Source: a virus. From it: a DNA stretch of 64,000 nt. The first letter of the stretch is position 1. Every line of letters begins with the position of its first letter. Position numbers and translations under genes: made by a program. The notes beneath the pieces are model-generated. The model worked only from the letters and a program-made list of their open reading frames with translations. It did no database searches and had not been told where the DNA came from. This document shows positions 31,037 to 56,465 of this stretch, piece by piece. Location of the stretch: positions 1-64,000 of the IMG/VR virus record IMGVR_UViG_3300028608_000008; one strand, 5' to 3'.

Positions 31037-32677
31037 ATGGCTTTCCCAAATACCAGTGCGGGTAGCTACAGCTTCGAACAGGATTTGTCGATCCGGGCGG
31101 CTGCTGCATCTACCTCCATCGGCGTTATCGTCGGTGAAGCTCCAATGGGGCCAGTCGGTGTTCCAACTTTGGTAACTGACCGTGCTGACCTCCGTGAACA
31201 ATTCGGTATCAAACACGCGAAGAAATTCGGTTTCGGTTTGTACAGTGCCGAAATTTTCCTCGCGCAATCCAAACGTCTTTACTACACTCGCGTTGTCGAT
31301 CAGGCCACCGCCCGCACTGCTGGCGCGTACCTTTCCGCTGACGACGTGAGCGCGGAATACCCAGTAATCAAACTGGTGAATTTCGACGACGGCACCAATC
31401 AGCCGCTCGGCGTTTTGGGTGATCCACTCAAAACTCTCGGTTTCGTAAAAGGCACCAAAGGCATCGAAAACGTTTTGCTGTACGTTTGCGCGGCCAACCC
31501 CGGAAAATGGAACAACCAACTTTCCGTTCAAGTTCGCCCGTCGAACACTGACGGCACCGAAGTTGGTGAGCATTCCGATCCGTACCAGTTCTACGTTGAT
31601 GTTTTCCTGAATTACTCCGGTCCCGGTAACGTTCCGGTCGAGTCGTTCCTGTGCTCGCGCAAAAATGAAATCGACGGCAACAACCAACAATTGTTTGTCG
31701 AAGACGTAATCAACCTGCGCTCGCAGTACATTCGCGTAAAAAACAATCCGCATTGCGGCCCGGTGCGCGTTGGCAAAGCCGCGTTCGAACAACTCGACGG
31801 CGGTGCCGATGGCAATCGTCCTGCGCAAGTTGATCTTATCAACGCGTGGAACCTGTACGACGACAAAGAGCAGATTCTCGTAAACCTGCTTATCAACGCC
31901 GGTTACACCACGCCTGCTTTCCAGAAGAAAATGGAAAACATCGCAAAACTGCGCGGTGACTGCGTTGCGTTGCTCGACCTGCCAGACGATATGGCGCAAG
32001 TTTCGCGTGCGGTGAATTACCGTCGCAACACGCTGAATCTGAACTCCAGCTACGCGGCAATGTACGCGCCGTTTGTGGAAGTGCTGGATACCGATTCCAA
32101 CAAAAACATTTTCATTCCGCCTTCCGCGTTCGTCGCCGCAGCCTGTGCATTCACTGACAGCAACCGCGCCGTTTGGTTCGCGCCAGCCGGTTTGAATCGT
32201 GGTCAAGTAAACGTGCGTAACCTGCGCATGCGTTACAACCAAGGCGCTCGCGATTCGTTGGATCAAGCGCAAATCAACATCATCCGCAACATTCCGGGCC
32301 GTGGTTTCGTTATCATGGGCCAAGATACGTTGCAAACTTTTGCTTCCGGTTTCAGCAACTTGAACGTTCGCCGTTTGGTGAACTTCATCAAAACCAGTAT
32401 CGAAGCGGCGACGATTCCGTCGGTGTTCAACCCGAACGACGAATTCGAACGTCTCAAGTTGAAAAACATTTGCGACGATTTCATGCGCCCAATCAAATCG
32501 GGCCGTGGTGTTTACGAGTGGGTGACGATCTGCGATGATCGGAACAACAAACCTGCAACCATCGCAAACAACGATATCAAGCTCGACTTGATTATCGACC
32601 CTGAAATCCCGGCCAAGCGCGCCCACCTCGGGGCCAACGTGCAACCGACCGGCGCCGTGACCTTCACTGAGGCATAA
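31037..32677 (+). CDS. Tail sheath protein paralogue (auxiliary sheath)
   Basis: This 546-residue contractile-sheath family protein starts at an ATG at 31037, preferred over a GTG at 31028 because of the AAGGG site. It is clearly paralogous to the main sheath at 54867. Shared landmarks include a INAGYT segment, NYRRN versus NFRRN, WFAPAG in both, QTLQ-type residues, NVRRLVN versus PVRRLIN, and PIKSGRG versus PIKAGRG near the C-terminus. The last landmarks lie in the C-terminal core that interlocks sheath subunits in contractile tails. It stands far from the tube and main sheath and at the head of an Ig-protein cassette, so it may form a distinct layer or a mixed sheath. The C-terminal tail is longer than in the other copy. 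Confidence 0.88.
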   Translation: MAFPNTSAGSYSFEQDLSIRAAAASTSIGVIVGEAPMGPVGVPTLVTDRADLREQFGIKHAKKFGFGLYSAEIFLAQSKRLYYTRVVDQATARTAGAYLSADDVSAEYPVIKLVNFDDGTNQPLGVLGDPLKTLGFVKGTKGIENVLLYVCAANPGKWNNQLSVQVRPSNTDGTEVGEHSDPYQFYVDVFLNYSGPGNVPVESFLCSRKNEIDGNNQQLFVEDVINLRSQYIRVKNNPHCGPVRVGKAAFEQLDGGADGNRPAQVDLINAWNLYDDKEQILVNLLINAGYTTPAFQKKMENIAKLRGDCVALLDLPDDMAQVSRAVNYRRNTLNLNSSYAAMYAPFVEVLDTDSNKNIFIPPSAFVAAACAFTDSNRAVWFAPAGLNRGQVNVRNLRMRYNQGARDSLDQAQINIIRNIPGRGFVIMGQDTLQTFASGFSNLNVRRLVNFIKTSIEAATIPSVFNPNDEFERLKLKNICDDFMRPIKSGRGVYEWVTICDDRNNKPATIANNDIKLDLIIDPEIPAKRAHLGANVQPTGAVTFTEA

Positions 32678-32684
32678 GTCAAAA

Positions 32685-33329
32685 ATGTCTGATCTGAAAC
32701 TGCAAAAACTGATCGAAAGTCTGGAAATCGCTTCCGACGTTCGCAACATGGACGAAACGAACCCAATCGTTCACCGTCTTTCCAACCCGACCATTCGCAA
32801 AGTTACCGCCATCGTTTGCGGCGTGCGTGAGCCAATGAATCTGATTCTGCCGCTCAACGTAACGTGGTTCGTTTTCGACCCACTGTCGCCGTACTACAAA
32901 ATGGCGCTGCGCCGGAAATCGAAAACCACCGTCGCGAATTCCGGTTTCATTCACCAATGGGAACTGGTTGACACCATCGACCAAGTTTTCGTTGACCAAT
33001 TCTACGACGCGGAAGATACCGCGCTGCTGAATGAAAACGAACCAGTTCCAGCCGCTACCACTTTGGTTTCCGGTATCGCTCGCCTGTCGTATCCGGCGAA
33101 AGATGCTACCGATCCAATCGTGGTTGGTGAAGGCGATCCGCGTTTGACCGATGCGCGTACTCCAAAAGCGCACAGTCACCCGGAAAAACCGGCGACCAAA
33201 CTGAAAACCAAAACCAACGTTGTCACCATCGACCAATCGAAAGCCCCGGTTGTTGGTGCAACGCTGGTAGCGACAAGCCCGACTAGCGCTGAATGGCGCG
33301 TGCTGACTTCCTCCGATATCCAACGGTGA
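32685..33329 (+). CDS. Tail fibre/decoration protein with no Ig domains (N-terminal module only)
   Basis: This 214-residue protein consists of the module found at the N-terminus of the next two proteins: an amphipathic helix, a VxPFN/LPLNV strand pair, then a DPRLTDAR-x4-H-x-H segment followed by a beta tail. The DPRLTDAR-type motif is widespread in phage tail-fibre and receptor-binding proteins. This may be a short form that caps or anchors the longer ones. Coupled downstream of the sheath paralogue and likely on the same mRNA. Confidence 0.7.
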   Translation: MSDLKLQKLIESLEIASDVRNMDETNPIVHRLSNPTIRKVTAIVCGVREPMNLILPLNVTWFVFDPLSPYYKMALRRKSKTTVANSGFIHQWELVDTIDQVFVDQFYDAEDTALLNENEPVPAATTLVSGIARLSYPAKDATDPIVVGEGDPRLTDARTPKAHSHPEKPATKLKTKTNVVTIDQSKAPVVGATLVATSPTSAEWRVLTSSDIQR

Positions 33330-33333
33330 GCCA

Positions 33334-35661
33334 ATGCAAACTCTGACCGATTTCATCGAAGAAAAGATTGCGATTGCTGACGACTTTCGCGGTCTGGATT
33401 CGATTAACCCGGTCGAGATCGTGATCGAGGACGCGTACAAAAATAAGTACGTTGTCCTCGTTTCGCGTTTCGAACCGGACGCGGTAACTGTTCCATTCAA
33501 CGTGTGCTGGATCAACAATGATCCAAATCACAAAGACTACAAAACGCTGCAACGTCGCGTTGACGCGGAAGGCTATGACGACGGCAATTACCGTTACGTC
33601 TGGTCGGTGATTTCTACCGTCGAAGAAATCTTTACCGAATTGCAGTATTACAAAAAGGCTGCTGACCCGATTCTCGGCGAAGTCGATGATTTCGGTTTGC
33701 TGCCTGCAACCGTTTCCACTTTCGGTGCGTTCCGTGTTTCGGTCGATCCCGAAGTAGAAGACGACACCGTTTCGGTTGCCGATACCGATCCGCGCATGAG
33801 CGATGATCGTGAACCGGTTGACCATGACCACGGCGACCAAATCACCACCATGATCGCTGGCGGTTTTTCGGAAGTTGACGACGGTGAAGGTGGCACCACG
33901 CAGGAACAAAACATCGTTTACGTTTCTGCAAACCCGCCAAACAAAGGCGACATTTTTGTCGTTACCGCAGTTTCTCCAGACGGCCTGAGCTACACCGGCG
34001 AATGGAAAGCTCCGGATACTTCCATCGGTTACACCGGCCCGCTGCCAGCTTCGCTTTTGGTTGTCGGTCCCGGCGTTATCGTGGACAGCCTGACCAACCA
34101 TGTTTTGCGTGCAAACGTAACCATGGACGACGGCACCGTTTACAAATCGGTGCAGGCTGTTTGGGAAGTTATCGACAATGGCGAATGGGGTAAAGTTGGC
34201 AAAAACACTGGCGTGTTCCAAGCGCTGGAAGTTTTCGCACAACAAACCGTGCGCGTCAAAGCAACGTGGACCCATCCGGATTCCGGCGTTTCGATTTCCA
34301 ACTTCATCGACATTACCATTCGCGATGCGAGTGGCGTTGTGCGCCTGACCGGTTTGCAAATTCAAGGTCCGGGCCAGTTGGACAAAGGCGGCGCTCCGCA
34401 GCTTTATCAAGTGGTTGCAGAATACAGCAACGGCGATACCAATCTGGTAAACCCGAATTCCTTCACTTCGTCCAACGCGCAAGCGGGTACGTTTGTGAAC
34501 GGTACGCTGACTCCGCAATCGACTTTGGCCGGAAACAAAGTTACAACCCTGACCGCAAGTTTCACCAGCGGCGGCGTAACCAAAACTTCCACGCTGACTG
34601 TCACCGTGCGCGATGCTGACGTTTATCCAGACGGCATTACCATTCAGGGCGCGGGTTCGGTTAATCAGGGCACCACTTCTGATTACACCATTTCCGTTCA
34701 CTACACTGACGGTTCCACGCAAACCAAAAACGCAACTGCATGGTCGCTTTCGAGCACCACCGATGCAACCATTGCTGTTTCTGGTCGCCTGACTGCAAAA
34801 GCGATTACCGTGCCGGGCAACAAGTCGGTAACGATCAACGCTTCGCTGACCGAAAAAGGTGTGACCCTGACCGGCAGCCTCCCAGTCACCATCGTGGACA
34901 ACATCAACTATCCGGTAAGTGCGAAAATCACCGGTTCGCTTTCGGTAGCGGCTGGCGCAACTTCGCAATACACGTTGATGGTGAAATACAAAGACAACAC
35001 CGAAGTTGCGAAAACTCCTTCGGCGTGGACTTCTTCCAACACCACCAATGCGACCATCGACAACACCGGTTTGCTCACCGCGAAAAACATTTCGTCGGCT
35101 GCGACCGTTACCGTCGGTGCGACCTACTCGGAAAAGGGCGTGAATTTGTCTCCGACTTTGAACGTTCAAGTCACCGTTGCGGCACCGCAAGCGATTCGCT
35201 TCGGTATTGCGAAGTTTGCAAACAAAAACTTCACCGGTGGCATCATCGAACCGCTGACCCAACAGCAAATCGAGTACGGCGTTACCAACGACCATACTCC
35301 GGGCGGTCTGCAATACGATCATTGGGCAAACGTTCAGGCGTTCTTCAATGCCGTTATGACGCAAACCATTCCGGCAACTGGCGGCACTATTGATACTTCG
35401 GTCGGCCTCGACGAATATCTCTATGTTGCGTACCCGGCCACTATTTCCAGTCTGTCGTATCAGGATTTGGTTTCCAACTTCCCTGCGACCCTGACTGGCG
35501 TGAACTGGCCGGATGACGTAGTTGGCGAACCTTCGCCTGCGCCATCCGATGTTGCTTTGGTAAACGTCACCGTTGGCGGCGTAACTGGTCAGTGGAAAGT
35601 TCAGCGTATCGACTACGCCGGTCCGATGCAGACCAAGTTTGCTGTGACCGTAAACAACTAA
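33334..35661 (+). CDS. Tail-associated protein with four Ig-like domains
   Basis: This 775-residue protein has the shared N-terminal module (about residues 1-220, with a DPRMSDDREP-x-DHDH segment), then four bacterial Ig-like (BIG2-type) repeats of about 90-95 residues. Each repeat starts with a hydrophobic V/I strand and Gly, carries a WxxSS or similar mid-strand, a GxLTAK-type turn and an alternating V/T strand end. A unique C-terminal domain of about 170 residues follows, perhaps the host- or virion-binding tip. Ig-like domains in phage tails and capsids are commonly displayed on the surface to attach to carbohydrates. The start follows the upstream stop by four bases. Confidence 0.75.
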   Translation: MQTLTDFIEEKIAIADDFRGLDSINPVEIVIEDAYKNKYVVLVSRFEPDAVTVPFNVCWINNDPNHKDYKTLQRRVDAEGYDDGNYRYVWSVISTVEEIFTELQYYKKAADPILGEVDDFGLLPATVSTFGAFRVSVDPEVEDDTVSVADTDPRMSDDREPVDHDHGDQITTMIAGGFSEVDDGEGGTTQEQNIVYVSANPPNKGDIFVVTAVSPDGLSYTGEWKAPDTSIGYTGPLPASLLVVGPGVIVDSLTNHVLRANVTMDDGTVYKSVQAVWEVIDNGEWGKVGKNTGVFQALEVFAQQTVRVKATWTHPDSGVSISNFIDITIRDASGVVRLTGLQIQGPGQLDKGGAPQLYQVVAEYSNGDTNLVNPNSFTSSNAQAGTFVNGTLTPQSTLAGNKVTTLTASFTSGGVTKTSTLTVTVRDADVYPDGITIQGAGSVNQGTTSDYTISVHYTDGSTQTKNATAWSLSSTTDATIAVSGRLTAKAITVPGNKSVTINASLTEKGVTLTGSLPVTIVDNINYPVSAKITGSLSVAAGATSQYTLMVKYKDNTEVAKTPSAWTSSNTTNATIDNTGLLTAKNISSAATVTVGATYSEKGVNLSPTLNVQVTVAAPQAIRFGIAKFANKNFTGGIIEPLTQQQIEYGVTNDHTPGGLQYDHWANVQAFFNAVMTQTIPATGGTIDTSVGLDEYLYVAYPATISSLSYQDLVSNFPATLTGVNWPDDVVGEPSPAPSDVALVNVTVGGVTGQWKVQRIDYAGPMQTKFAVTVNN

Positions 35662-35671
35662 GGGCAAAAAC

Positions 35672-37963
35672 GTGAACTTGAGTCAATGGGCGGAACAGCA
35701 AATCTCCATTGCTCAACTGTACCGCAACTTGTCTCAAGTGAACCCCGTAACTCTGTCCATCCAAAGCGGTGGACAGAGTTTTTCCGTTCTTGTGTCCCAC
35801 ACAGAGCCGGGGTTCAACGTTCCATTCAATGTGATTTGGGTTTACGCAGGCGAAGATTTTTACGGTGCAGTTCTCCGACGTGTTTCGGAAAACCCTTTGC
35901 CACCGTTCGCCAATGAATGGATCGAACTTGAAACCTCAGCCGAGCTTTTTTCGGAAGTGCAATACTGGCATCCGGACTTGCCCGAGCTTGGGGAAATCGA
36001 GCGATTTGCAGTTGGGCCAGCGACAACGGACAAACCCGGAATTTTTCGCACGACCACAAAGTATCGGGCCGTGGAAACCAATGCAAGGGAAATGAGCGAC
36101 GCACGCGAGGCACTGGAACACGAACACGATCAAGAACCGAATCAGTTTATTCAGGTTGGGGAATTGATAATCGACGTAAGCCAGAGCAAACCCCCAAAGG
36201 CGGGCGACGTTTTAGTAATCACAAAAATTGACGACGACGGCGTTTCAGGGGAGTGGATGCAATTGGCAGACAATGACATTCTTTATGACGGGCCGTGGCC
36301 GGTCAGTCTGCGCATCAACGGTCCGTCCGGGCCGGTAAACGAATTGACACAAGTGCAATTCACCGCAGACCTGATTTTCGAAGACGATACCGTAAAACGT
36401 ATCAAGCCGGTTTGGGAATTGAGTGACACGCTGGTAGGCACTCTTTCCGAAGACGGTATTTTTCAAGCCTACAACATCCAGCAAGATGTTACGGTAAAAA
36501 TCAAAGCGCGATTCTATCACGAAGAAACTGAAACCACGCTTTCCGCGTCGGTTGATCTTCTGGTTCGCGACGTTGACTCGAATCTGATACTCGCTAGTTT
36601 GGAAGTTTCGGGGCCGACCAACGTAAACAAAGGCGCAATCGCCACTTACACTGCGACCGCTGTTTTCACAAATGGCAGTCGTTCGCCAGTTGTTCCAGAT
36701 TACTGGCGCGTTGGTAATGCAGACGCGGGTTCGATCACTGGCGGCGGTATTTTCACTGCCAAGAAAGTTATCGGTTCGCAAGAAACACGCATCACCGCAA
36801 TGTACACGTACAAAGGTGTGACCAAGCAAGCGTTTATCGACGTTGAAGTTTTGGACACCACGGTTTATCCGCAGTCGGCGCGCATCATTGGCCCCGATAC
36901 GCTGGACGAAAACACCAATGGCACCTACAAACTTGAAGTGACGTTTATCAACGGACGTAAACAGGTTGTAGCGGTAAATGATTGGGCGCACACAAACCCA
37001 GCGGCTGGCCGCATCGGTCAATTGACTGGCACGTTTGTAGTTCCTGATCTGACCGAAAATCGCCAAACGAAAATCACCGCGTCGTATTCGCTGGAAGGTA
37101 CAACCATTGCAGCGGAGAAAGACATTTCGGTAATCGACACCACGGTCTACCCGGCCCGCATTGATATCATCGGTCCCGATTTCGTTATTGAAGGTCGCGC
37201 AGCGCAATTCAGCGCGCTGGTTTACTTCACCGATGGCACTAGCGGAACCCGTGCATTGACGTGGAAGCAAAACAGCACTGCATTCGGTTCCATTGATCCG
37301 GCCTCCGGAATCTTTACCGCAGTGGGCGATGTTGATTCTGACAAGTCGGTAAAAATCTCCACCTCGTTTACGGCAAACGGCCGCACCGTGAATGCTGAAA
37401 AAGACATTCTGGTAAAAACCACGCTCAACTTGCCAGTTAGTGCGTTGGTCACGGCACCGAGTGCTATGCGAGTTGGCGAATCGACTACGCTTTTGTTTAC
37501 GGTCACGTATGCGGACGGCACCACGGCTCGGGTTAAACCACAGTGGGCGCTTTCCAATTCAAACATTGCCTCCATTTCTGCCGACGGCCTTTTGACCGCG
37601 AAGCAAGTTTTGGAAGCGAGTGTAATAACGGTTGAAGGGACGTACAGCGCATCTGGCGTAACGATTAAAGCGCAAGCAGTCGTGACGATTAACGATTTGA
37701 TTTCGCGTCCGCTGTCCGCCAGCATTGTCGGCCCCGCTTCGGTATCCACAACCAACACAGCGCAATTCCAACTTTCGGTGAAATTCTCCGATGGTGGCGA
37801 GCGTCTGGTTGCAGGCGTTTGGCAATCGTCTGATCGCAATGTCGCGACAATTGATTCCTCCGGTATTTTGCGGCCATACGCAACGGGCGTAACCACGTTG
37901 ACGGCTGTTTATTCCGCGCAGGGGCAGACGGTTTCTTCGACAAAAGAGATTACGGTAATATGA
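35672..37963 (+). CDS. Tail-associated protein with six Ig-like domains
   Basis: This 763-residue protein starts at GTG 35672 after AAGGG. The N-terminal module matches its two upstream neighbours (VPFNV strand, then MSDAREALEHEHD). About six Ig-like repeats of about 90 residues then run to the very end, with VYP-type linkers between several of them. There is no unique tip domain as in the four-repeat protein. The three genes form a series with zero, four and six Ig domains. Codon use is less biased than in the previous two. Confidence 0.75.
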   Translation: MNLSQWAEQQISIAQLYRNLSQVNPVTLSIQSGGQSFSVLVSHTEPGFNVPFNVIWVYAGEDFYGAVLRRVSENPLPPFANEWIELETSAELFSEVQYWHPDLPELGEIERFAVGPATTDKPGIFRTTTKYRAVETNAREMSDAREALEHEHDQEPNQFIQVGELIIDVSQSKPPKAGDVLVITKIDDDGVSGEWMQLADNDILYDGPWPVSLRINGPSGPVNELTQVQFTADLIFEDDTVKRIKPVWELSDTLVGTLSEDGIFQAYNIQQDVTVKIKARFYHEETETTLSASVDLLVRDVDSNLILASLEVSGPTNVNKGAIATYTATAVFTNGSRSPVVPDYWRVGNADAGSITGGGIFTAKKVIGSQETRITAMYTYKGVTKQAFIDVEVLDTTVYPQSARIIGPDTLDENTNGTYKLEVTFINGRKQVVAVNDWAHTNPAAGRIGQLTGTFVVPDLTENRQTKITASYSLEGTTIAAEKDISVIDTTVYPARIDIIGPDFVIEGRAAQFSALVYFTDGTSGTRALTWKQNSTAFGSIDPASGIFTAVGDVDSDKSVKISTSFTANGRTVNAEKDILVKTTLNLPVSALVTAPSAMRVGESTTLLFTVTYADGTTARVKPQWALSNSNIASISADGLLTAKQVLEASVITVEGTYSASGVTIKAQAVVTINDLISRPLSASIVGPASVSTTNTAQFQLSVKFSDGGERLVAGVWQSSDRNVATIDSSGILRPYATGVTTLTAVYSAQGQTVSSTKEITVI

Positions 37964-39192
37964 ACATCGCCATCGCGGCAGCGCCCGCAGAATTCTCGGA
38001 ATTCACATGGTACAAAAACGCTGGGCCTGAATTCGTCTTCAAGCCCGGTAACAGCCAACACGCATTGAACGTGCAGAAAGGCGATCTGATCGGTTTGAAG
38101 AAAACCGCACGCGGCCCAACCGCAGGTCAGTATCAGGTCGTACTGGAAAAATACCCGCACATCATTTTCCGTTCGGTGAGAAAGGAAGCGGTTGAAGAAC
38201 ACCTTTCGAAATTCAAACCGTATGACGGCATTCCGGCCAAGCCTGAAAAGACTGGTCAACGCCATGCTCGGGTGAAAGTCAAAGGTGCAGACGCGCACGA
38301 CAAGCAAACCGCGCTGAAATACAAACCGGAAAAACTGCCAAAAGAAGAAGGCCAGTACGACAAAGCCAACTACCAATGGCGGGAAGTGGTTCACGGTCCA
38401 ATTCCGATTGCGACAATGCACCACAAGAAAACCCGGACGGCGCTCAAGAAAGGCGATATCATCGGTGTGCGTTTCTGGACTCCGGCGCGTGGTGGATTTA
38501 TCATCATGCCAAGCGGGGAACGCGTAAACATCAGCGAAACAACTTACGAATCTGTCACCAGCGGCGCAACCATTCTTCCGAGTGCGCGCCAGCAAGTGGG
38601 GATCGTGGTGCTGACCGACATTGCGCATCAACTGCCGAAGCGTTCGCGAATCACCAAAGTCAAACCTGAGAAGCCGTTGGAATTTGAGGATGACGACGAA
38701 TTCGAAGACGACGAGGAACACGAAACCGCGAAGCAAGTGAAGCGCGGCAAAAACTTCCTCCAGCAACACAAAGATATCGTTTCTGACTTCGAGTACGAAG
38801 ACGATGACGATGAAGACGACTTCGAAGATGACGATGATGATTTCGACGAATTCGAAGAAGACGATGATTCGGAAGAAGAAACCGAAGAATCGGAAGACGA
38901 CGATTCGGAAGATTCTGTAAATACCGAAGATGACGATACGCAATTCGTCGAAGAAGGCATGATTATTCAGTTGGCCAACGGCAAGAAACTCACCGTTGCG
39001 GCGATTGAAGAATTAGAAGTCTCCGATCTTCTGTATCTGTATGACACCGATACTGGCAACTTCCGTAAACAACCGATCCCTTCCGGGCTGGACGTGCGTA
39101 AACTTCCGGGCGGCGCCAAACTGGTTGGCCGTGCGAAAGAAGACGAACTGCAAAACATCCGGCGTCGTGTTGCTCGACTACTCCACAGGTAA
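37960..39192 (+). CDS. Unknown protein with long acidic run
   Basis: This 410-residue protein is not recognised. It overlaps the Ig-protein stop as ATGA. The N-terminal 235 residues look globular and beta-rich. Residues about 243-326 are almost entirely Asp and Glu with a few Phe and Ser. A short beta/alpha C-terminal domain follows. Long acidic runs are seen in DNA-mimic, scaffold and chaperone proteins. A role in binding basic partners (for example the Lys-rich proteins in this window) is possible. Confidence 0.6.
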   Translation: MNIAIAAAPAEFSEFTWYKNAGPEFVFKPGNSQHALNVQKGDLIGLKKTARGPTAGQYQVVLEKYPHIIFRSVRKEAVEEHLSKFKPYDGIPAKPEKTGQRHARVKVKGADAHDKQTALKYKPEKLPKEEGQYDKANYQWREVVHGPIPIATMHHKKTRTALKKGDIIGVRFWTPARGGFIIMPSGERVNISETTYESVTSGATILPSARQQVGIVVLTDIAHQLPKRSRITKVKPEKPLEFEDDDEFEDDEEHETAKQVKRGKNFLQQHKDIVSDFEYEDDDDEDDFEDDDDDFDEFEEDDDSEEETEESEDDDSEDSVNTEDDDTQFVEEGMIIQLANGKKLTVAAIEELEVSDLLYLYDTDTGNFRKQPIPSGLDVRKLPGGAKLVGRAKEDELQNIRRRVARLLHR

Positions 39193-39195
39193 CTC

Positions 39196-41846: not shown

Positions 41847-41858
41847 CTGGAGAACGAA

Positions 41859-45737: not shown

Positions 45738-45747
45738 GGAAACCGAA

Positions 45748-46809: not shown

Positions 46810-46821
46810 CGGGAGCACTGC

Positions 46822-47847: not shown

Positions 47848-47854
47848 CAAAAAG

Positions 47855-47891
47855 AACCCGCCTTTGCCTAGTGCATTGTGCGGGTTTTTTG
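47855..47891 (+). terminator. Rho-independent terminator
   Basis: AACCCGC (47855-47861) pairs with GCGGGTT (47880-47886), followed by TTTT. The stem sequence closely resembles that of the terminator near 511-549. Confidence 0.85.
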
Positions 47892-47910
47892 TTGCTTAAA
47901 AATTGTTTGA

Positions 47911-47922
47911 GCTAATTTTTAA
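47911..47922 (+). promoter_or_regulatory. Candidate regulatory motif GCTAATTTTTAA, copy 1
   Basis: GCTAATTTTTAA lies between the terminator and the start at 47943 and is repeated exactly at 48325-48336 in front of the next gene. Two identical 12-base words before adjacent genes suggest a shared promoter element or protein-binding site. Confidence 0.35.
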
Positions 47923-47942
47923 TCATGGAACTGGAGGACACA

Positions 47943-48320
47943 ATGAAAGTTACCATTCCATTAAAAGCGGTTGCACGGGCCGCACCATTGCATGACTTCC
48001 ACGCTTCCGGAACGACGGACGAAAAACACCTCGACTATCATCTGGAACGAATCCCCGCCGTAAAGCAAGGTTTAGTCGGCTTGAAAGTCGATTATGACTC
48101 GCTTGGGGATAACGGAAGCGAAACTTGCCGTATCGAATTAACCGCTGACCATTGCGATGCAGTAATGGAATTGTCGATGGCTGATGACGGTTGGGCTTAC
48201 AAAGCGCAACTGAATTCGAATGGCTCGACCAGAACGTTTGAGGGAACCGGTTCGCATGACAGCAAACAGGCCCTTGTACGGAAAGTGAATGGCATGATTC
48301 GAATCATGCTAGAAAATTGA
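47943..48320 (+). CDS. Unknown protein in head-gene block
   Basis: This 125-residue protein is not recognised. The ATG at 47943 (CTGGAGG site) is preferred to an ATG at 47925. Mixed alpha/beta, acidic, with one Cys-rich region and no motif I can assign. It stands alone between a terminator and the leader of the next gene, so it may be separately expressed. Confidence 0.55.
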   Translation: MKVTIPLKAVARAAPLHDFHASGTTDEKHLDYHLERIPAVKQGLVGLKVDYDSLGDNGSETCRIELTADHCDAVMELSMADDGWAYKAQLNSNGSTRTFEGTGSHDSKQALVRKVNGMIRIMLEN

Positions 48321-48324
48321 AGTC

Positions 48325-48386
48325 GCTAATTTTTAAAACAGGAATCGCATTCCTAACCTCTAAACCAATCCAGTTTAGGAGCCACC
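48325..48386 (+). promoter_or_regulatory. Structured 5' leader of the scaffold-like gene, with motif copy 2
   Basis: The exact word GCTAATTTTTAA (48325-48336) is followed by two small hairpins: GGAAT-cgc-ATTCC (48341-48353) and CTAAAC-caatcca-GTTTAG (48360-48378). The second hairpin's right arm touches the AGGAG ribosome binding site before the ATG at 48387, so folding could limit translation initiation. Function inferred. Confidence 0.4.
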
Positions 48387-50240
48387 ATGACCAAAGATAA
48401 AGCGCAGCGTCGCGGTATCGTTGTAGTGGGTGACACTCTGGAGCAGGCAACAGGCTTTTTCACCGCTGTGGCAAAAGGTGAGAATGTTTCGGTATTCCAA
48501 AACGCTGACGGTGACGTGCAAATCGCTACCGCAAGTGCAGAGGTTTCCGGCATTCAAATCCTCGATCCGCTTTCCGGTGAGGAACTCGTTTCCGTTGACG
48601 ATCAACAGGTCGTTATCGAAAGTCTGGCGTCGGCTGTGGGACAAAGTGTCGAAGCCCAATTCGTTCAATGCACTGCGGGTTGCAACTCGTATGTAATGTC
48701 GGACGATACCGAACTTTTGCACAAATGTCCGGCATGTGCCTCTGACCTGCCCGACTTGGGAAATTCCAACGTGAACGAAAACCAAAACGCTGCACCGGGC
48801 GAAAAGCGTGAATCGCTGCTTGCCTATGCTGGCTCTTTCGAAGAAGCCAGCCAACAATTCGTTGCGATGGTAAACGGCGAAGTACAACCGCACACTTTCC
48901 AGTGTGACGACGTTGTTGTCGCTTGCGCCAGCGAAATGAAATTCAACATCTACCAAGGTGTTGAAGCCATTGGCTCTCAGGAAGCGCCGGTCAGCATGAC
49001 CGCTTTTGCATCCAGTGCCGAAGGCGAACAGAAAAACGTTCCGGCGCACCATTTCATGTGCGTTTCGAAATCGTGCGGTACTCACGTTGTAGCCAGCGAC
49101 GAATCGCCGCTGTTCTGCCCCGGTTGCAGTGCCGGTCTGATCGACCCCGCCGATATCGCCACCGCTTCCGACGACGAAGACGATGACGAAGATTACGACG
49201 AAGACGATCTGAACGACGACGAGTCGGAAGACGACGAAGAAGACGAAGACGAATCCGACGAAGAAGACGAAGACGAATCCGACGAGGATGAAGACTTCGA
49301 AGACGACGAAGAAGACGAAGACGAAGCAATCACGCTTTCCGTTTCCTCTGCCAAACCGTCCGGCGTCCGCAAAAAAGAAAAACCTTCTGCCGCTGCGCAA
49401 ACCGAACAGCCTGCCGCTGCTGAATCTCTGGTTTCCGTTGCCGCAAGTTTCGTTGCTCTGTCGAGCGGCGATATGAAACCTGAAAACGTTGACGTGGCTT
49501 ATGCCGCAAACGTTGCCGGTGACAGCCGCTGGTACGCTTTCCACGACGGCGTTCCATTCGCGCAAGCAGTGGCCTCGCAATCGAAAATCGAAAGTTTCGC
49601 TACCGATACGTTCGGTCGCACTTTCAAAGCAATCGCCGCCGAACACGGTGTAGCGACTGCCATGGCTGAACTCGGTTTCACCGAAATCAAGCCAGAAATC
49701 AACGTCGAGAAATTCGTCGAAAGCGAAGTCACTTCGCAAGTCGAATCTCGCGTTGCGCAAATCGCAGAAGCTTCCAGCCGCGATGCTGCCGAATTCAATT
49801 CGCGCTTCCTCGCCGCAATCGCTACTGCAAGCCAAGGTATCAACTCCGGTTTCTACAAAGGCGAAACGCCGAACCCGATCATCACCGCTCTGGCTGGTGC
49901 TCTGGAAGAAGCTGGCATTACCGGCGGCGCAGCACTGGCCGCGCAATGTTTCGCTCGCCATGGCGATGCGTATCACAAAGCGCTCGTTGCGAAAGCAAGC
50001 CAAATCATGCAGTACGATCTGCAAGTTCAAAACCAAATGGCGCAAGCCGTTGCGGATCACCAGAATCCGCAAACTGGTAGCGAAACTGCCGTTGCATCGT
50101 CGCTGCCTGTCGGTCGCCCTGTCGGCGGTCTGACCCACGTTGGTCTGCAACAAGAAACTCGCGAAACTGCAACCGCCGCTTCGCAACATGGTGACGATTT
50201 CGCTCAACGCCTCGCCGGTCTGAAACTCGGCCGCCGTTAA
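48387..50240 (+). CDS. Probable prohead core/scaffold protein with Zn ribbons and acidic run
   Basis: This 617-residue protein has a repeated module seen three times: a helix with an EQATGFF/EEASQQF/SVAASF pattern followed by strands. The first two copies end in zinc-ribbon pairs (C-x3-C with CPAC; C-x4-C with CPGC). An Asp/Glu-rich run covers residues about 258-315. The C-terminal third is alanine-rich and helical. It sits between the prohead protease and the capsid genes, where tailed phages usually keep the scaffold. Scaffolds are cleaved or lost during maturation. Codon bias is strong. Alternative: an internal head protein. Confidence 0.6.
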   Translation: MTKDKAQRRGIVVVGDTLEQATGFFTAVAKGENVSVFQNADGDVQIATASAEVSGIQILDPLSGEELVSVDDQQVVIESLASAVGQSVEAQFVQCTAGCNSYVMSDDTELLHKCPACASDLPDLGNSNVNENQNAAPGEKRESLLAYAGSFEEASQQFVAMVNGEVQPHTFQCDDVVVACASEMKFNIYQGVEAIGSQEAPVSMTAFASSAEGEQKNVPAHHFMCVSKSCGTHVVASDESPLFCPGCSAGLIDPADIATASDDEDDDEDYDEDDLNDDESEDDEEDEDESDEEDEDESDEDEDFEDDEEDEDEAITLSVSSAKPSGVRKKEKPSAAAQTEQPAAAESLVSVAASFVALSSGDMKPENVDVAYAANVAGDSRWYAFHDGVPFAQAVASQSKIESFATDTFGRTFKAIAAEHGVATAMAELGFTEIKPEINVEKFVESEVTSQVESRVAQIAEASSRDAAEFNSRFLAAIATASQGINSGFYKGETPNPIITALAGALEEAGITGGAALAAQCFARHGDAYHKALVAKASQIMQYDLQVQNQMAQAVADHQNPQTGSETAVASSLPVGRPVGGLTHVGLQQETRETATAASQHGDDFAQRLAGLKLGRR

Positions 50241-50264
50241 GCCTTACATTCTCTGGAGAGAAAA

Positions 50265-50963
50265 ATGAACGTTCAAAAACTGACTCGTCTGTTCCGCACC
50301 GAACACCTGCCGGTTCAAACCGGCGTCATCATCGAAGAAGAAGGCACCGCGCTGGTTTTCGTTTCTGAAAACGGCCAAACCGTTGTTCGTCCTTCGACCG
50401 GCGCCGCCAACGAAATCTTCGCCGGTTTCAGCCTGCACGGTCGCAACAGCCCACCTTCCTACGTTCCGCACGCTTTCGAATCCACCGTTCCGGAATCGCT
50501 GGTTGTCGAACTGCCTCGCGTTCCGCTGACCGGCCAAGTTCTGGTCAAAGTCGCTGGCGCGAAACTGGAAGTTGTCGCTGGCGCTCCTGCCGACGCAACC
50601 GAAGTTCAACTGTCGGGCAAAGAACTGATTTTCTTCGCCGGTGAAGGCAAGAAATCGCTGTACGTGCAATTCATCTACGAACCTTCGCTGGCCGAAGCGC
50701 GCACCATTCTCGGCGATATGCCGATTGGCGGTCTGCCTGCTCACTACCAAGGTATCATCGGTGTTGCACTGCACGGCCAAATCGGCACCACCATGTACGA
50801 CGCTTCGGTCGATTGGACCGGCGTAATCAACCCGAATCTCGGCGTTGATGGTCGCCTGACTGTTGGCGGTTCCGGTAAGAAACTGGAAAACGTCACCGTT
50901 CTGGCTGCCCCTTCCACTGACGCCGGTTCCTACGGTGCTCTGCAAGTTCGCATTTCCGCCTAA
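50265..50963 (+). CDS. Probable head decoration or minor capsid protein
   Basis: This 232-residue protein is beta-rich with strongly biased codons. It starts after a strong CTGGAGAG site and precedes the capsid gene by 30 bases, so the pair is probably made in bulk. I do not recognise the family from sequence; the role as capsid-stabilising or decoration protein is inferred from position and expression signs. Confidence 0.5.
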   Translation: MNVQKLTRLFRTEHLPVQTGVIIEEEGTALVFVSENGQTVVRPSTGAANEIFAGFSLHGRNSPPSYVPHAFESTVPESLVVELPRVPLTGQVLVKVAGAKLEVVAGAPADATEVQLSGKELIFFAGEGKKSLYVQFIYEPSLAEARTILGDMPIGGLPAHYQGIIGVALHGQIGTTMYDASVDWTGVINPNLGVDGRLTVGGSGKKLENVTVLAAPSTDAGSYGALQVRISA

Positions 50964-50993
50964 GTCTACTTGGCATTTTCTGGAGAAACAAAT

Positions 50994-52088
50994 ATGCACG
51001 GTCAACTGCGTGGTGCCAAGCTGATGCTGGCGAATGGCAACCCAATCGAAGAACTGCGTTTCGGCAAAAGCCGCGAACTGGCTCTGAGTTCCGGAACTGG
51101 CGAATTCAACGCCTACGACAAAAAAGACCTGCTGAATTCCCTGTCGGGTCTGATGCAGGCAGTGGCTACCGGCCAAATCGTTCACACACAACCGCAAAGC
51201 GATCTGGTTGCTACCGCTTCCGACCGCCGCGAAATGCTGGCCGAAGCTCGCCAATCCCCTGAAAAGTGGAACGCACTGGGCGCCTCCATCGCTCAACAAA
51301 TTTACGATCAAACTGATCGTGAAGGTTTCGTGCGGAAACTGGCTGTCGGCAACACTCTGCGTCAAGGCGAAGTGCAGCGCGTTCCAATGCCTGCTCACGA
51401 CACCAGCGCCGTTGTTGCAACTTCGGCTACCGGTGTTGGCTACCAACAAATTCGCCAGCGCGTATTCACTCCGGAAGAATTCGAGATTATCGCGAACGTT
51501 CGCGTAAACACTCTCGATCTGGAACAAGTGAACGGCGACCTGCTGGAACACGCCTACAATGACGGTCTGCAAAGCATCATGGTTGCAGAAGACCGCATCT
51601 GGAAAACTGCCGCCGACCTGACCGTTGGCGTCATGAACCCGATGGAATACATCGCGGGCGAACTGACCACCAAAAACCTCGGCCGTCTGCGTCAAGCAGT
51701 TGCAAAATGGAACCTGCCAGTTGCACACTGCCTGATCGCGAACGACTTCTGGACCGACATTATCGGTTCGAACGATTTCGCAACCTTCCTCGACCCGATC
51801 ACCAAATACGATCTGGCCCTGAATGGTCAACTCGGTACTCTGGTCGGCATGACCCTGATTACCGACGCCTTCCGTCAACCGAACCAGAAAGTTCTGGAAG
51901 CTGGCGAAATCTACGTCGTGGCTTCGAAAGAAAACCACGCTGCCTACTCGACTCGTGGCGGTGTTCGTTCCGAACCGGCTTCCAATAGCTGGGAAGGTTC
52001 GACCTCTCGCGGCTGGCTGATGAGCGAGCCTTTCTCGTTCGTTCTGGCCAACAGCCGTTCGGTCGCCAAAGGTAAGCGTGTAGCTTAA
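50994..52088 (+). CDS. Major capsid protein (HK97 fold)
   Basis: This 364-residue protein starts at the ATG at 50994 (CTGGAGA site), not the in-frame TTG at 50970. A variable N-terminal arm is followed by a long helical segment and the typical HK97-type core: a strand/helix unit LIANDFWTDIIGSND, a loop, then LGTLVGMTLITDAF and a C-terminal strand region. Codon bias is the strongest in the window and both flanks have strong translation signals. It builds the icosahedral shell. A hairpin without T run follows it. Confidence 0.85.
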   Translation: MHGQLRGAKLMLANGNPIEELRFGKSRELALSSGTGEFNAYDKKDLLNSLSGLMQAVATGQIVHTQPQSDLVATASDRREMLAEARQSPEKWNALGASIAQQIYDQTDREGFVRKLAVGNTLRQGEVQRVPMPAHDTSAVVATSATGVGYQQIRQRVFTPEEFEIIANVRVNTLDLEQVNGDLLEHAYNDGLQSIMVAEDRIWKTAADLTVGVMNPMEYIAGELTTKNLGRLRQAVAKWNLPVAHCLIANDFWTDIIGSNDFATFLDPITKYDLALNGQLGTLVGMTLITDAFRQPNQKVLEAGEIYVVASKENHAAYSTRGGVRSEPASNSWEGSTSRGWLMSEPFSFVLANSRSVAKGKRVA

Positions 52089-52105
52089 TTCGGCTCTGAA
52101 AAGAT

Positions 52106-52133
52106 TGCGTAGCGGGAGCGCCCCCGCTGCGCA
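52106..52133 (+). other. Hairpin after the capsid gene
   Basis: TGCG-t-AGCGGG and CCCGCT-g-CGCA form a long stem around AGCGCC, without a T run. It probably shields the capsid mRNA or tunes how much of the downstream gene is made. Confidence 0.5.
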
Positions 52134-52151
52134 GTTAAAAGGAGTGCGAAC

Positions 52152-52586
52152 ATGAGCGACATTCAAACCATGTTGGCAATTGCGGCATTTCATCATCGTA
52201 ACGGACAATTGGAACTCGCCAATAACGTGATTGCGCAAGCGACCACGCTGGAAGGTTTCGAAAGTTACGTTTCCGAACTTGTGCGCCGCCCAATGGGCAG
52301 CCAACTTGTCGGCGGTGCTCCGAAAGGTGAAAACACAATCGCCCCTTCGCTTCACGGCGCTGGGCCGAATGTCTCTTTGGAAAAAGCTGTTGCCATCGCT
52401 GCGAGCGTTTACGCGCACAATACGCGAATGGATGACGGTGATTTCCTTGAGTTCAATCCGTCTGCCGAGGCATTGGCCTATGCCGACGATTCGGGATCAC
52501 ATGACGATGATGAATTGGTTTCCGTCGCTAGCAATAGCGCCCCGGAAGCTACGGCCAAATCTGGTCGCGTCACAATCCAACTGTAA
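52152..52586 (+). CDS. Unknown protein after capsid gene
   Basis: This 144-residue protein is not recognised. It starts after an AAGGAG site in the hairpin-linked gap. The N-terminal part is helical; the C-terminal third is acidic and Ser-rich. Placement suggests a minor capsid or head-completion protein. Confidence 0.55.
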   Translation: MSDIQTMLAIAAFHHRNGQLELANNVIAQATTLEGFESYVSELVRRPMGSQLVGGAPKGENTIAPSLHGAGPNVSLEKAVAIAASVYAHNTRMDDGDFLEFNPSAEALAYADDSGSHDDDELVSVASNSAPEATAKSGRVTIQL

Positions 52587-52590
52587 CACG

Positions 52591-52633
52591 AAAAAAGGCC
52601 GTCGCGGGGTTTACTCGTTGCGGCCTTTTGTCG
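52591..52633 (+). terminator. Rho-independent terminator
   Basis: AAAAGGCCG (52593-52601) pairs with CGGCCTTTT (52621-52629). The stem's own T run serves as the tail. It ends the capsid operon. Confidence 0.85.
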
Positions 52634-52652
52634 TTTCTGGACGGATCACAAC

Positions 52653-53399
52653 ATGCCAAATTTTGATAAGTTTGATCTGCTCGGGAAAAAGATCGACAAG
52701 AACACGCCGTTCTTTACCGGGCTGCTCGGAGCACACGCGGCTATCAAACGGTTTTTCGGTTTCCAAAAGATTCCGCTTCCAATCATTCAATCCAACAACG
52801 TGAAAGCTGTTTTGCGCCAGCAAGTTTCTGTTGACGACAATAGTGGCGATCATTACCCCTACGCATACATTTCGATAAACAACTTCGAAATGATTGTGGA
52901 CGAACAAGCTCCACGTACTGCACGCCGACACGGCCAAGGTTATGCGGACAACGGGACCAATTCTACCGTCGTGAAGTTCTACGGATTCCCGATGGTTGTT
53001 TCGCTGGAATTGCACTTCGTCACCAACGACATTTTCGACGCCGTGAAATTCGGTTTGAAAAGTCTGACGCTGCTCAATACCGGCACACTCAACTTCGATG
53101 TTGAGGATGATAACTTTGCGTGGAAGGTTGTCGTGAAAGGCGACTCGCCGTCGATTGCATTCCCGCGCACTGACAAAGACAACGAAGCTGATCCAGAAGC
53201 ATTCGATATGGTTTGTTCCATTTCCGTGCGGCTGTGGTCGGGCGTGATGAAAGAAGTTCCAAAGATCAACAACGAAGGCCGCGTGGATCGACGTGTCGGA
53301 CTTGCAACGGGTCCAAACGCAATGCAAGAAATCAACAGCGGCAAAATCCAAATCGGCGGCAACGTCATTTTCGATGACGAAGGATTAGAAGATGCGTAG
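52653..53399 (+). CDS. Probable neck or sheath-terminator protein
   Basis: This 248-residue protein is beta-rich and lies after the capsid terminator and just before a multi-domain protein and the main sheath. In T4-like phages this place holds neck and tail-terminator genes. No specific motif confirms it, so the call is positional. It overlaps the next gene by 8 bases. Confidence 0.45.
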   Translation: MPNFDKFDLLGKKIDKNTPFFTGLLGAHAAIKRFFGFQKIPLPIIQSNNVKAVLRQQVSVDDNSGDHYPYAYISINNFEMIVDEQAPRTARRHGQGYADNGTNSTVVKFYGFPMVVSLELHFVTNDIFDAVKFGLKSLTLLNTGTLNFDVEDDNFAWKVVVKGDSPSIAFPRTDKDNEADPEAFDMVCSISVRLWSGVMKEVPKINNEGRVDRRVGLATGPNAMQEINSGKIQIGGNVIFDDEGLEDA

Positions 53400-54810
53400 A
53401 AGCGATCAATACAAGCCGACCGCAAAAACGATTGTCACGCAAGTTCGCCAAACCACGGTGGACGCCGTTCGCCGCCGCAGCACTGGCATGCAGGATGTTG
53501 CAACCGAAGTTTTGGATGCAGCTTTGACACAAACCGATATCGTAATCGGACCTGACAAACCGTACACGCTGCGCGACGTTCGCCAATACCTTTCCATTTT
53601 CACGCCGTCTCCTATCGGCCTTGAACTGGTGGCGTTTGGTGAAATTCCACCAGTGCCCGAACGTGTAGAACCGAGCCAGTTCACCACTGCAAAAATGGAA
53701 ATCGAACCGGTACTCGCGGGCCAGTTTATCAACGTCGCGGTTTTCGATCCCGATCTTTTCGGCGCGTCCGTGCAAGTGGAATGCTTCAACGTCAATAGCG
53801 GCGAGACAGAATACATCACGCTGCATTGCGTTCGCAAAAACGAATATCGCGGTTTCATCCAGTCCCTGAATAGCGCGACTGCCGGTGTAAACTTCGACGG
53901 CACCATGTACTGCAAACACAACGACATTCTGCGTTTCACGTTTACCGATCCGCACAATGAATCCGGCCTGTCGCAAGACCTGACCCAAGACGTGGCAGTT
54001 GTCAGCCCGGTGAAAGCCACCGAAATGATGATTCAGCGTTACGTCATTTCTGGTGAGCGTTTGCGCGTTGCCATTTACGACGGCAGCGATGCACCGTTTC
54101 AAAGTTTCACCGTTTTAAACAACGCGTCCGGAACCGCAATGGACGGCGCGCTTGAGCCAGACGTAAATGATCCAACCATTCTTGTCGGTAGTATCTTGCT
54201 GGGCACGATGGACACTGGCGATGAATTGGGAGTTTCGAGCAACGATTCCCTGACAATCACTTATGCAAACGGCCATGACGCAACCGGCCTTTTCCAAACA
54301 GTGACCAGCACAGCAACGGTGAAAGACCCCGGAACTGTGTTGGGCGAAATCAAAGTGGCGGCGACTACCAAAATCTACGGCAATCTGGAAATCGAAGTTT
54401 CTGACTTTGACCTTTTCACGACCGAAGTTGAAGTGTATGTCACCAACACTCGTACAAACATTTCCAAACCAGTTCTGCTTGCGGAAGTCTGGCCGGGAAT
54501 GAGCGTCTTCCGGAGTGCTGTAGAACTGGGGCCTGAATTCGGGTTGCCCGGTGACACTCTGGAAATAACGTATTCGGATTATGACGAAAGCGGGACCGAA
54601 GTGCTGACTGCACAAACCGTTATCGCCAGCCACGTCGAACACGTTGACCCTGTTCCAGAAGAAACTCCCGAACCTGTTGATACCGGAATTTCGAAACCGG
54701 TGCAATTGGTGGTTAACGGGCTGTTTATCCTGAATGGTTCGTTTGCTGGTTCGTTGAAGCTTTATTCACTCGACGAAAATGACGTGCGCTGCACTCTCAT
54801 TAAGGCGTAA
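53392..54810 (+). CDS. Virion protein with three internal beta repeats, possible neck component
   Basis: This 472-residue protein has a basic N-terminal helical segment (about 1-100), then three repeats of about 95-100 residues. Each repeat begins with an INVAVFD/LRVAIYD/LEIEVSD strand and ends with a D-x-L-x-(I/F)-T-(Y/F) strand followed by Asp and Gly. A short C-terminal domain closes it. The repeats look like beta-sandwich domains. Placement directly before the sheath suggests a neck or collar component. Confidence 0.55.
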   Translation: MRRSDQYKPTAKTIVTQVRQTTVDAVRRRSTGMQDVATEVLDAALTQTDIVIGPDKPYTLRDVRQYLSIFTPSPIGLELVAFGEIPPVPERVEPSQFTTAKMEIEPVLAGQFINVAVFDPDLFGASVQVECFNVNSGETEYITLHCVRKNEYRGFIQSLNSATAGVNFDGTMYCKHNDILRFTFTDPHNESGLSQDLTQDVAVVSPVKATEMMIQRYVISGERLRVAIYDGSDAPFQSFTVLNNASGTAMDGALEPDVNDPTILVGSILLGTMDTGDELGVSSNDSLTITYANGHDATGLFQTVTSTATVKDPGTVLGEIKVAATTKIYGNLEIEVSDFDLFTTEVEVYVTNTRTNISKPVLLAEVWPGMSVFRSAVELGPEFGLPGDTLEITYSDYDESGTEVLTAQTVIASHVEHVDPVPEETPEPVDTGISKPVQLVVNGLFILNGSFAGSLKLYSLDENDVRCTLIKA

Positions 54811-54814
54811 CGGA

Positions 54815-54827
54815 TAATTTAAAAGTA
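54815..54827 (+). promoter_or_regulatory. Weak relative of the candidate promoter motif
   Basis: TAATTTAAAAGTA resembles the motifs at 4799 and 30965 with a two-base deletion. It precedes the main sheath, but it also lies directly in front of a small hairpin (54827-54853), so promoter use is doubtful. Confidence 0.2.
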
Positions 54828-54853
54828 ATCCCAATCGTCTTTCGGGATTTTTA
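54827..54853 (+). terminator. Short Rho-independent terminator
   Basis: AATCCC (54827-54832) pairs with GGGATT (54844-54849), followed by TTTATT. A short stem, so possibly leaky. Confidence 0.6.
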
Positions 54854-54866
54854 TTGGAGAAACAAC

Positions 54867-56465
54867 ATGCCATTGTACAACGGTAGCAGCACAAGCGCCG
54901 GTGTTTACGGGGGTGAACAAGACAATTCGCAAACCGCACGGCAAACAGCGCCCAGCATTGGCGCGATTGTTGGTCCGTCCAAACGCGGTGTAGTCGGCGT
55001 TCCAACGCTGACCGTTGACGTAAACGATTTTCGTGCGAAATTCGGTCGTCGCGATGCGTCTCTCACGTTCGCTCACTTCTGCGCTGAGCAATTCCTGAAA
55101 TACTCGAACCAGCTTTACTTCACTCGCGTTGCGGTGAATGCTGAATACGGTTCGATCAGTGTTCGTCTGGTTGATGGCTATGCGCAAATCAAAGCCGCCG
55201 ATCAGGGTTATGCTGACCCGACTCAACGCACTCAAGTTCCCGAGGAAGTTCTTTTCCTCTACGCCGCCGACCCCGGCGAGTGGAACAACAAAATCCGTGT
55301 CGTCATGTATCCAGACGTGAACGATATGGAAAACGAAATGTTTGTTCTGGAAGTTTACGAAAACTCGCTGACTGTTGCCGATGAAGTTTATCGTGCCACA
55401 CTGCGCGACAAGGTGGATGGTTACGGTCGCCAATTGAACATTGTTGACCAACTCGTTGCCAAGAAATCGCGCCTGCGTGCAATCGTAAACGAAGACGCTC
55501 CGAAGTTTGTAGAAACCGAAGGCGCCTTCCAAGCGATCAACGCCGTAATCAGCGGCGATCTGGCATTCGGTAACGACGGCGATCCGGTAACGGTTTCCGA
55601 CATTATCGAAGGTTGGGACACTTTCGAAGAAGTTGAAGAAGTCGAAGTGACTTTGCTGATTAACGCGGGTTACACCGATATCAGCATTCAGCAACGCATG
55701 CTGGAAATCGCAATCGCTCGCCGGGATTGTTTTGCAATTCTCGACGTGCCTTCCGATCAGCAAACGTCGCAAGCCGCTTCCAACTTCCGTCGCAACGTGC
55801 TGAATGCAAATACTTCGTTTGGTGGTTTGTACACGCCGGACGTTGTAGTCATGACCGATGACGGCCAGTCCGTCAACTGCCCGCCTTCTGGCGTGGTGGC
55901 TGGTGTGTTTGCTTACAGCGATTCGCAAACTGCCGAATGGTTTGCGCCAGCGGGCGTTACTCGCGGTGCGTTGGATTCCGAAGTGAGCGAAGTTACCCAG
56001 CGTTACAAACTGGGCGACCGAAACATGATGGACCAAAACCAAGTCAACTTCGTTCACGTATTGGCCGGTTACGGTTTCTGCGTGTGGGGCGCACAAACGC
56101 TTCAAGCTTTCAGTTCCGCACTTTCCGACGTTCCGGTTCGCCGTCTTATCAACTTGGTTGAGAAACGCGCGAAATACGAAACGATGGTCGGGCTGTTTGA
56201 GCCAAACGATCCGTTCCTCTGGCAAACCCTCAAGCAAATCGTGGAAGACATTCTCGGTCCGATCAAAGCGGGTCGCGGTCTGTATGCCTACAAAGTGAAA
56301 TGCGACGAGGAAACCAACCCGCCAGAACAAATTGCTAACGGTGACGTGGCGCTGGTGTACTACATCCAGCCAACTCGTTACGGTAAACGAATTCTGTTTA
56401 CCACTTCCGTTGCGAAGACCGGGCAAATTTCCACCGCCGTTGAAGTTGTAGCGGCCACTGCTTAA
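54867..56465 (+). CDS. Main tail sheath protein
   Basis: This 532-residue protein carries the contractile sheath pattern: an N-terminal strand/linker, an Ig-like mid domain, and a C-terminal core with INAGYT, NFRRN, WFAPAG, PVRRLIN and PIKAGRG. It directly precedes the tail tube gene, which is the usual order, so this is the sheath proper. It starts after a TTGGAGA site. Sheath subunits polymerise around the tube and contract to drive DNA through the envelope. A paralogue lies at 31037. Confidence 0.9.
   Translation: MPLYNGSSTSAGVYGGEQDNSQTARQTAPSIGAIVGPSKRGVVGVPTLTVDVNDFRAKFGRRDASLTFAHFCAEQFLKYSNQLYFTRVAVNAEYGSISVRLVDGYAQIKAADQGYADPTQRTQVPEEVLFLYAADPGEWNNKIRVVMYPDVNDMENEMFVLEVYENSLTVADEVYRATLRDKVDGYGRQLNIVDQLVAKKSRLRAIVNEDAPKFVETEGAFQAINAVISGDLAFGNDGDPVTVSDIIEGWDTFEEVEEVEVTLLINAGYTDISIQQRMLEIAIARRDCFAILDVPSDQQTSQAASNFRRNVLNANTSFGGLYTPDVVVMTDDGQSVNCPPSGVVAGVFAYSDSQTAEWFAPAGVTRGALDSEVSEVTQRYKLGDRNMMDQNQVNFVHVLAGYGFCVWGAQTLQAFSSALSDVPVRRLINLVEKRAKYETMVGLFEPNDPFLWQTLKQIVEDILGPIKAGRGLYAYKVKCDEETNPPEQIANGDVALVYYIQPTRYGKRILFTTSVAKTGQISTAVEVVAATA

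What the first reader, a model, noticed from the sequence alone, without database searches (positions are those of the whole stretch)
31037..56465. Two paralogous tail sheath proteins in one phage
The proteins at 31037-32677 (546 residues) and 54867-56465 (532 residues) share many landmarks across their C-terminal halves: INAGYT, N-x-RRN, WFAPAG, a V-RRL-x-N pair and PIK(S/A)GRG. Only the second precedes the tube gene. Most myoviruses have one sheath. A second sheath at the head of its own Ig-protein cassette could form a mixed sheath, a collar or a second contractile layer.
Basis: partly seen in the sequence, partly recalled or inferred. Interest (0 to 1): 0.75.

Follow-up and report, generated by a model that had tools for sequence, protein, structure and literature searches.

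The report
Known two-protein tail sheath, jumbo phage
This uncultivated virus carries two related genes for its contractile tail sheath, which is real but already described for its relatives (phage PaBG and kin); the less explored part is that one copy always sits beside genes for Ig-type fibres that may form the 'hairs' seen on these tails.

Summary
Both genes encode full-length sheath proteins (36% identity over the whole length, E=6e-99; both PHROG 23 and PF04984), not only similar C-terminal halves. The window is part of a 124,245-bp virus record. It belongs to the PaBG/Lu11 ("Lupandier") group of jumbo phages, whose two-component sheath is already published; in PaBG both sheath proteins were identified in purified virions. 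So the phenomenon is known and this is a new member. My tree shows one ancient duplication, with both copies kept. Copy B (54867) keeps the ancestral place before the tube genes. Copy A (31037) heads a cassette of a 214-aa protein and long Ig-domain proteins that share its N-terminal domain. That protein was found in 65 of 50,697 phage records, almost all from this group, and in neither single-sheath relative tested. A and B diverge most in the middle domain, which each clade keeps conserved. Best reading: one single-layer sheath built of both proteins, with A probably the subunit to which Ig fibres, perhaps the reported tail "hairs", are fixed. The hair step is inferred. A second contractile layer is unlikely.

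The parts
31037..32677 (+). Sheath A (546 aa), the relocated paralogue; orthologue of PaBG gp213 and Lu11 gp81
   Evidence: PHROG 23 E=6e-86; PF04984; A clade of the tree; model pLDDT 82.9, pTM 0.79, best PDB matches T4-type gp18 sheaths
32685..33329 (+). 214-aa putative anchor/adaptor protein; orthologue of PaBG gp214, a virion protein
   Evidence: PHROG 13325 E=2e-58; 58% identity to PaBG gp214; in 65 of 50,697 phage records; no PDB or Pfam match
33334..35661 (+). 775-aa protein: N-terminal domain shared with the 214-aa protein plus tandem Ig-like domains; putative sheath-attached fibre
   Evidence: PHROGs 13325 and 14098; 30% identity to the next protein; N-terminal 27% identity to the 214-aa protein
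35672..37963 (+). 763-aa paralogue of the previous protein; relative of PaBG gp215, a virion protein
   Evidence: PF02368 Big_2; 36% identity to PaBG gp215, E=7e-132
54867..56465 (+). Sheath B (532 aa), the paralogue in the ancestral position; orthologue of PaBG gp76 and Lu11 gp61
   Evidence: PHROG 23 E=2e-74; PF04984 and PF17482; B clade of the tree; directly before tube genes in all relatives with both genes in view
56478..56987 (+). Tail tube protein 1
   Evidence: PHROG 45 E=1e-29
57046..57552 (+). Tail tube paralogue 2 (possibly a tube initiator)
   Evidence: PHROG 45 E=5e-22; a second tube-type gene also occurs in single-sheath relatives

Best explanation
The window lies in an uncultivated jumbo phage of the PaBG/Lu11 ('Lupandier') group, and the two genes are the two subunits of that group's known two-component contractile sheath. 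An ancestral sheath gene was duplicated once, before the group radiated. Copy B stayed between the head genes and the tube genes. Copy A moved next to a cassette coding for a 214-aa protein and long Ig-domain proteins that share its N-terminal domain. Mechanism: both proteins polymerise around the one tube into one single-layer sheath through the usual N- and C-terminal arm interlock, and contract together. A has a specialised middle domain that most likely makes it the subunit to which the 214-aa protein and Ig fibres are fixed; these fibres may be the 'hairs' seen on some of these tails. Shown here: paralogy, fold of A, single old duplication, conserved gene neighbourhoods, paralogue-specific middle domain. 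Shown by others for PaBG: both sheath proteins, the 214-aa protein and the Ig protein are in virions. Inferred: that A and B mix in one sheath in this phage, the arrangement of A and B, and the hair function.
For: Full-length homology and family hits. A-model is a T4-gp18-type sheath (TM 0.70 to 9f4a/9ev2, 0.68-0.70 to 9mkb). Tree: A and B clades, each with the window protein sister to the Lu11/HRDY3 lineage, so one duplication and co-inheritance. Both copies in all eight named two-sheath group members tested and in most long A-bearing IMG/VR contigs; the two without B (G009, G012) are incomplete fragments. B directly before the tube wherever both are in view. In those named phages A is followed by the 214-aa/Ig cassette, directly or after one gene; Motura and phiXF1, with one sheath, lack it; 65 of 50,697 phage records carry the 214-aa protein, almost all in this group. 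Middle region aa 95-262: A-to-B identity 24% against 45% and 41% within clades; C-terminal region 37% against 48% and 49%. PaBG virion bands include gp213, gp76, gp214, gp215 (PMC7412058). Lu11, Y3 and the Dickeya JA/AD1 phages have 'hairy' tails (PMC6143709).
Against: No virion data exist for this phage. The key mixed-sheath paper (Kurochkina et al. 2018) could not be read here. PaBG bands are not quantified, so a minor, position-restricted role for one paralogue is not excluded. PaBG itself was described without hairs (PMC7412058) although it has the cassette. One basal contig (L062, 281 kb) has both sheaths but no 214-aa gene after A. The 214-aa protein is not found in the unrelated hairy phage CBB (no Pectobacterium phage in the organism list). 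The N-terminal arm of A (residues 1-24) is not confidently placed in the monomer model. No complex was modelled.
Confidence: 0.75

Rival explanations
1. Segmental sheath: B (or A) makes nearly all rings and the other paralogue only special layers at the baseplate or neck, as Afp3/Afp4 and Pvc3/Pvc4 are thought to do in extracellular contractile injection systems.
For: Sheath paralogues Afp2/3/4, Pvc2/3/4 and PlPVC1 2A/3A/4A are matched by both window proteins and are deposited as baseplate or sheath parts.
Against: In PaBG both proteins were identified as stained bands, which suggests that both are abundant, though this is not quantified (PMC7412058). A and B are similarly conserved and similar in length.
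Confidence: 0.18
2. Second contractile layer or separate collar made of A around a B sheath.
For: A has its own cassette away from the tube genes.
Against: A keeps the arms, fold and conserved C-terminal region that in known sheaths pack on the tube and neighbouring subunits; PaBG tails are reported as 20 nm wide and of ordinary type (PMC7412058); no double-layer sheath is known to me.
Confidence: 0.03
3. Alternative sheaths: A and B are used in different particles or conditions, not together.
For: Separate loci about 22 kb apart in the window and far apart in PaBG.
Against: Both proteins are in the same virion preparation of PaBG (PMC7412058), and both are retained across the whole group.
Confidence: 0.04

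Closest known systems
Two-component tail sheath of Pseudomonas phage PaBG (gp213 + gp76) and the 'Lupandier group' (Lu11, NCTB, Yoloswag, Y3, Alexandra, AD1, JA phages)
   Same: Two full-length PHROG 23 sheath paralogues; B before two tube genes; A before the 214-aa and Ig proteins; 54-56% identity of each copy to its PaBG orthologue
   Different: The window has two separate anchor-Ig proteins (775 and 763 aa) where PaBG has one of 1524 aa; phage uncultivated, host unknown
Single-sheath relatives: Achromobacter phage Motura, Burkholderia phages BcepSaruman and BcepSauron
   Same: Sheath gene near the capsid and tube genes in Motura, as for copy B
   Different: One sheath of about 652 aa with an extra domain; no PHROG 13325 cassette in Motura
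Multi-sheath contractile injection systems (AFP Afp2/3/4; PVC Pvc2/3/4)
   Same: Several sheath paralogues in one machine
   Different: Sheath genes there are in one operon (from knowledge), much more distant in sequence, and not followed by Ig fibres
Hairy Rak2-like phage CBB
   Same: Hairs along a contractile tail (PMC5259590)
   Different: The 214-aa family was not found in it; its hair genes are unknown

Membership tests
Phage tail sheath protein (PHROG 23 / PF04984) | Profile match over the curated cut-off and full-length homology | tested here: met
   Both proteins
Phage tail sheath protein (PHROG 23 / PF04984) | Contractile-sheath fold with N- and C-terminal arms | tested here: met
   Model of A (pLDDT 82.9), best PDB matches T4-type sheaths; C-terminal strands present, N-arm present in sequence but low confidence. 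B by 36% full-length identity; not modelled
Phage tail sheath protein (PHROG 23 / PF04984) | Presence in the virion tail | not testable with these tools
   Only for orthologues in PaBG (PMC7412058)
Lupandier-group (PaBG/Lu11) jumbo phage | Two sheath paralogues in the A and B clades | tested here: met
   Tree
Lupandier-group (PaBG/Lu11) jumbo phage | Shared gene order around both sheaths (helicase, polymerase, clamp, A, 214-aa, Ig, ligase; capsid, B, two tubes) | tested here: met
Lupandier-group (PaBG/Lu11) jumbo phage | Genome over 200 kb | tested here: inconclusive
   Record is 124,245 bp, completeness not given; relatives are 249-314 kb
Two-component (mixed) sheath | Both proteins in one sheath polymer | not testable with these tools
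   Needs cryo-EM or co-expression; published title for PaBG, text not available
Hairy myovirus | Hair-like appendages along the tail | not testable with these tools
   Uncultivated phage; relatives Lu11, Y3, JA and AD1 reported hairy (PMC6143709)

The most novel reading that the evidence does not exclude
Sheath A is a dedicated hair-bearing sheath subunit: its specialised middle domain binds the 214-aa protein and the N-terminal domain of the Ig proteins, so that the duplicated sheath gene exists to decorate the tail with long Ig fibres. This would name the genes of the tail hairs in this lineage.
Probability: 0.35. Interest if true: 0.55.

Novelty: new member of a known kind. Interest (0 to 1): 0.3.

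Why it matters
The two-sheath arrangement itself is known, so the window adds one deep lineage to it. What could matter is the link found here between the second sheath, a nearly group-specific 214-aa protein and Ig fibres: it gives a concrete candidate for the unidentified hair proteins of hairy myoviruses and a reason why a second sheath gene has been kept since before the group radiated.

Tried and rejected
Second tube as the partner of the second sheath (two complete tail shafts): rejected, because both tube-type genes lie together after B, and single-sheath relatives also have two tube-type genes (Motura; L116 and L077 fragments). Recent duplication or assembly artefact: rejected by 36% identity and the tree. 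Horizontal gain of one copy from an unrelated phage: not supported, A and B are each other's nearest clades and show matching sub-trees (Motura, phiXF1, L077 and L116 are long branches, so the exact root is less sure). Fold of the 214-aa protein: model poor (pTM 0.49) and no PDB match, so no fold claimed. RSL1 was not in the collection under the two accessions tried. Short C-terminal sheath-motif hits in other small proteins: seen, not explained. PHROG labels 'HNH endonuclease' (phrog_24148) on the 214-aa/Ig proteins and 'tail sheath' (phrog_12249) on other cassette genes look like label errors; such genes were not counted as sheaths.

Full report
Observation. BLASTP gives 196 identities in 551 columns, 298 bits, E=6e-99, from the N-terminal SAG.Y motif to the C-terminal TG motif. 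Both match PHROG 23 tail sheath and PF04984; a search of the whole 124,245-bp virus record with PF04984 finds these two places and no other.

What it is. tblastn against 50,697 phage records puts copy A closest to one sheath and copy B closest to the other sheath of the same phages: PaBG, Lu11, HRDY3 and NCTB (41-59% identity). All but one of the 40 best records list two places. Evseev et al. 2020 (PMC7412058) state that PaBG has two tail sheath proteins with 38% identity, that this marks the 'Lupandier group', and that they arose by duplication; their Table 1 lists both (gp213, gp76) among 14 bands of purified virions. Day et al. 2018 (PMC6143709) say all phages compared except phiRSL1 have two annotated sheaths. 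A review repeats it (PMC8472413). [quoted passage not shown] another paper mentions PaBG polysheaths from it (PMC6357053). The finding is therefore a new member of a known kind.

History. In a tree of 42 sheath proteins all A proteins, including the Erwinia/Dickeya/Yersinia ones, form one side (SH-aLRT 99) and all B proteins another (100, not counting the deep row L071). The window's A and B sit in matching positions, sister to the Lu11/HRDY3 lineage. Long branches (Motura, phiXF1, L077, L116) make the exact root less sure. B lies directly before a tube gene in every record where both are in view, and Motura's single sheath also lies near the capsid and tube genes, so B keeps the ancestral place and A is the moved copy.

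The A cassette. In every named two-sheath phage tested (PaBG, Lu11, HRDY3, NCTB, Yoloswag, Y3, JA11, fHe-Yen9-02) A is followed by genes of PHROG 13325; in Yoloswag, Y3 and fHe-Yen9-02 one other gene lies between. In the window these are a 214-aa protein and two Ig-domain proteins whose N-terminal parts resemble it. PaBG gp214 and gp215, the relatives, are also among the virion bands. Motura and phiXF1 have none. tblastn of the 214-aa protein finds 65 records, by first word of the name Erwinia 48, Dickeya 8, Pseudomonas 5, NCTB, Yersinia, one Salmonella and one Alcaligenes phage (the last weak, E=3e-7). A basal contig, L062, has both sheaths but not this gene after A, so sheath duplication may have come before the cassette.

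Where A and B differ. With 19 A and 17 B sequences, identity between clades is 31% in residues 1-94, 24% in 95-262 and 37% in 263-546, while within clades the three regions are alike (41-49%). A has small extra segments at 104-114, 137-142, 173-179 and 190-192, and B one near its residues 221-227. The paralogues are thus held to different, stable sequences in the middle domain, which in gp18-type sheaths lies to the outside (from knowledge), while the contraction core and arms stay similar. The model of A (pLDDT 82.9, pTM 0.79) matches Klebsiella KP1-type and T4 sheaths best.

Mechanism. The simplest account is one single-layer sheath containing both proteins, with A carrying the 214-aa and Ig proteins. 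Lu11, Y3 and the Dickeya phages of this group are reported to have hairs along the tail (PMC6143709); for the unrelated hairy phage CBB the authors could not assign hair genes and suggested an Ig-like surface-binding role (PMC5259590). PaBG was described without hairs, which speaks against a simple link or may reflect staining. Ratio and arrangement of A and B remain open; injection systems have several sheath paralogues in one machine, some of which are confined to particular layers (from knowledge).

Verdict. Observation confirmed; 'unusual for myoviruses' is fair, but already published for this group. The hair-anchor idea is the part worth testing.

Noticed in passing
56478-56987 and 57046-57552: Two tube-type paralogues lie side by side after sheath B (PHROG 45 both, 21% identity in part). 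Single-sheath relatives also have two, so the second may be a tube initiator.
   Followed up: partly
L062 (281-kb contig IMGVR_UViG_3300049182_000044): Basal member with both sheaths, but A is not followed by the 214-aa gene; it may show the state before the cassette joined A.
   Followed up: partly
PaBG 241740-241832 (L127), and similar spots in Lu11, HRDY3, JA11, Y3, Motura: Small open frames carry a match to about 30 residues of the sheath C-terminal motif; possibly sheath-initiator or neck proteins.
   Followed up: partly
7898-13864: 1988-aa helicase-like protein, in the place of PaBG gp202, which is reported as the largest virion band of PaBG.
   Followed up: no
32685-37963: PHROG 24148 calls the shared N-terminal domain of these tail proteins 'HNH endonuclease', which looks like a label error.
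   Followed up: no
59263-62547: 1094-aa protein joins tape-measure-like matches with a VgrG3-like C-terminal domain (PF21277, E=6e-66), annotated VgrG-like or endolysin in relatives.
   Followed up: no
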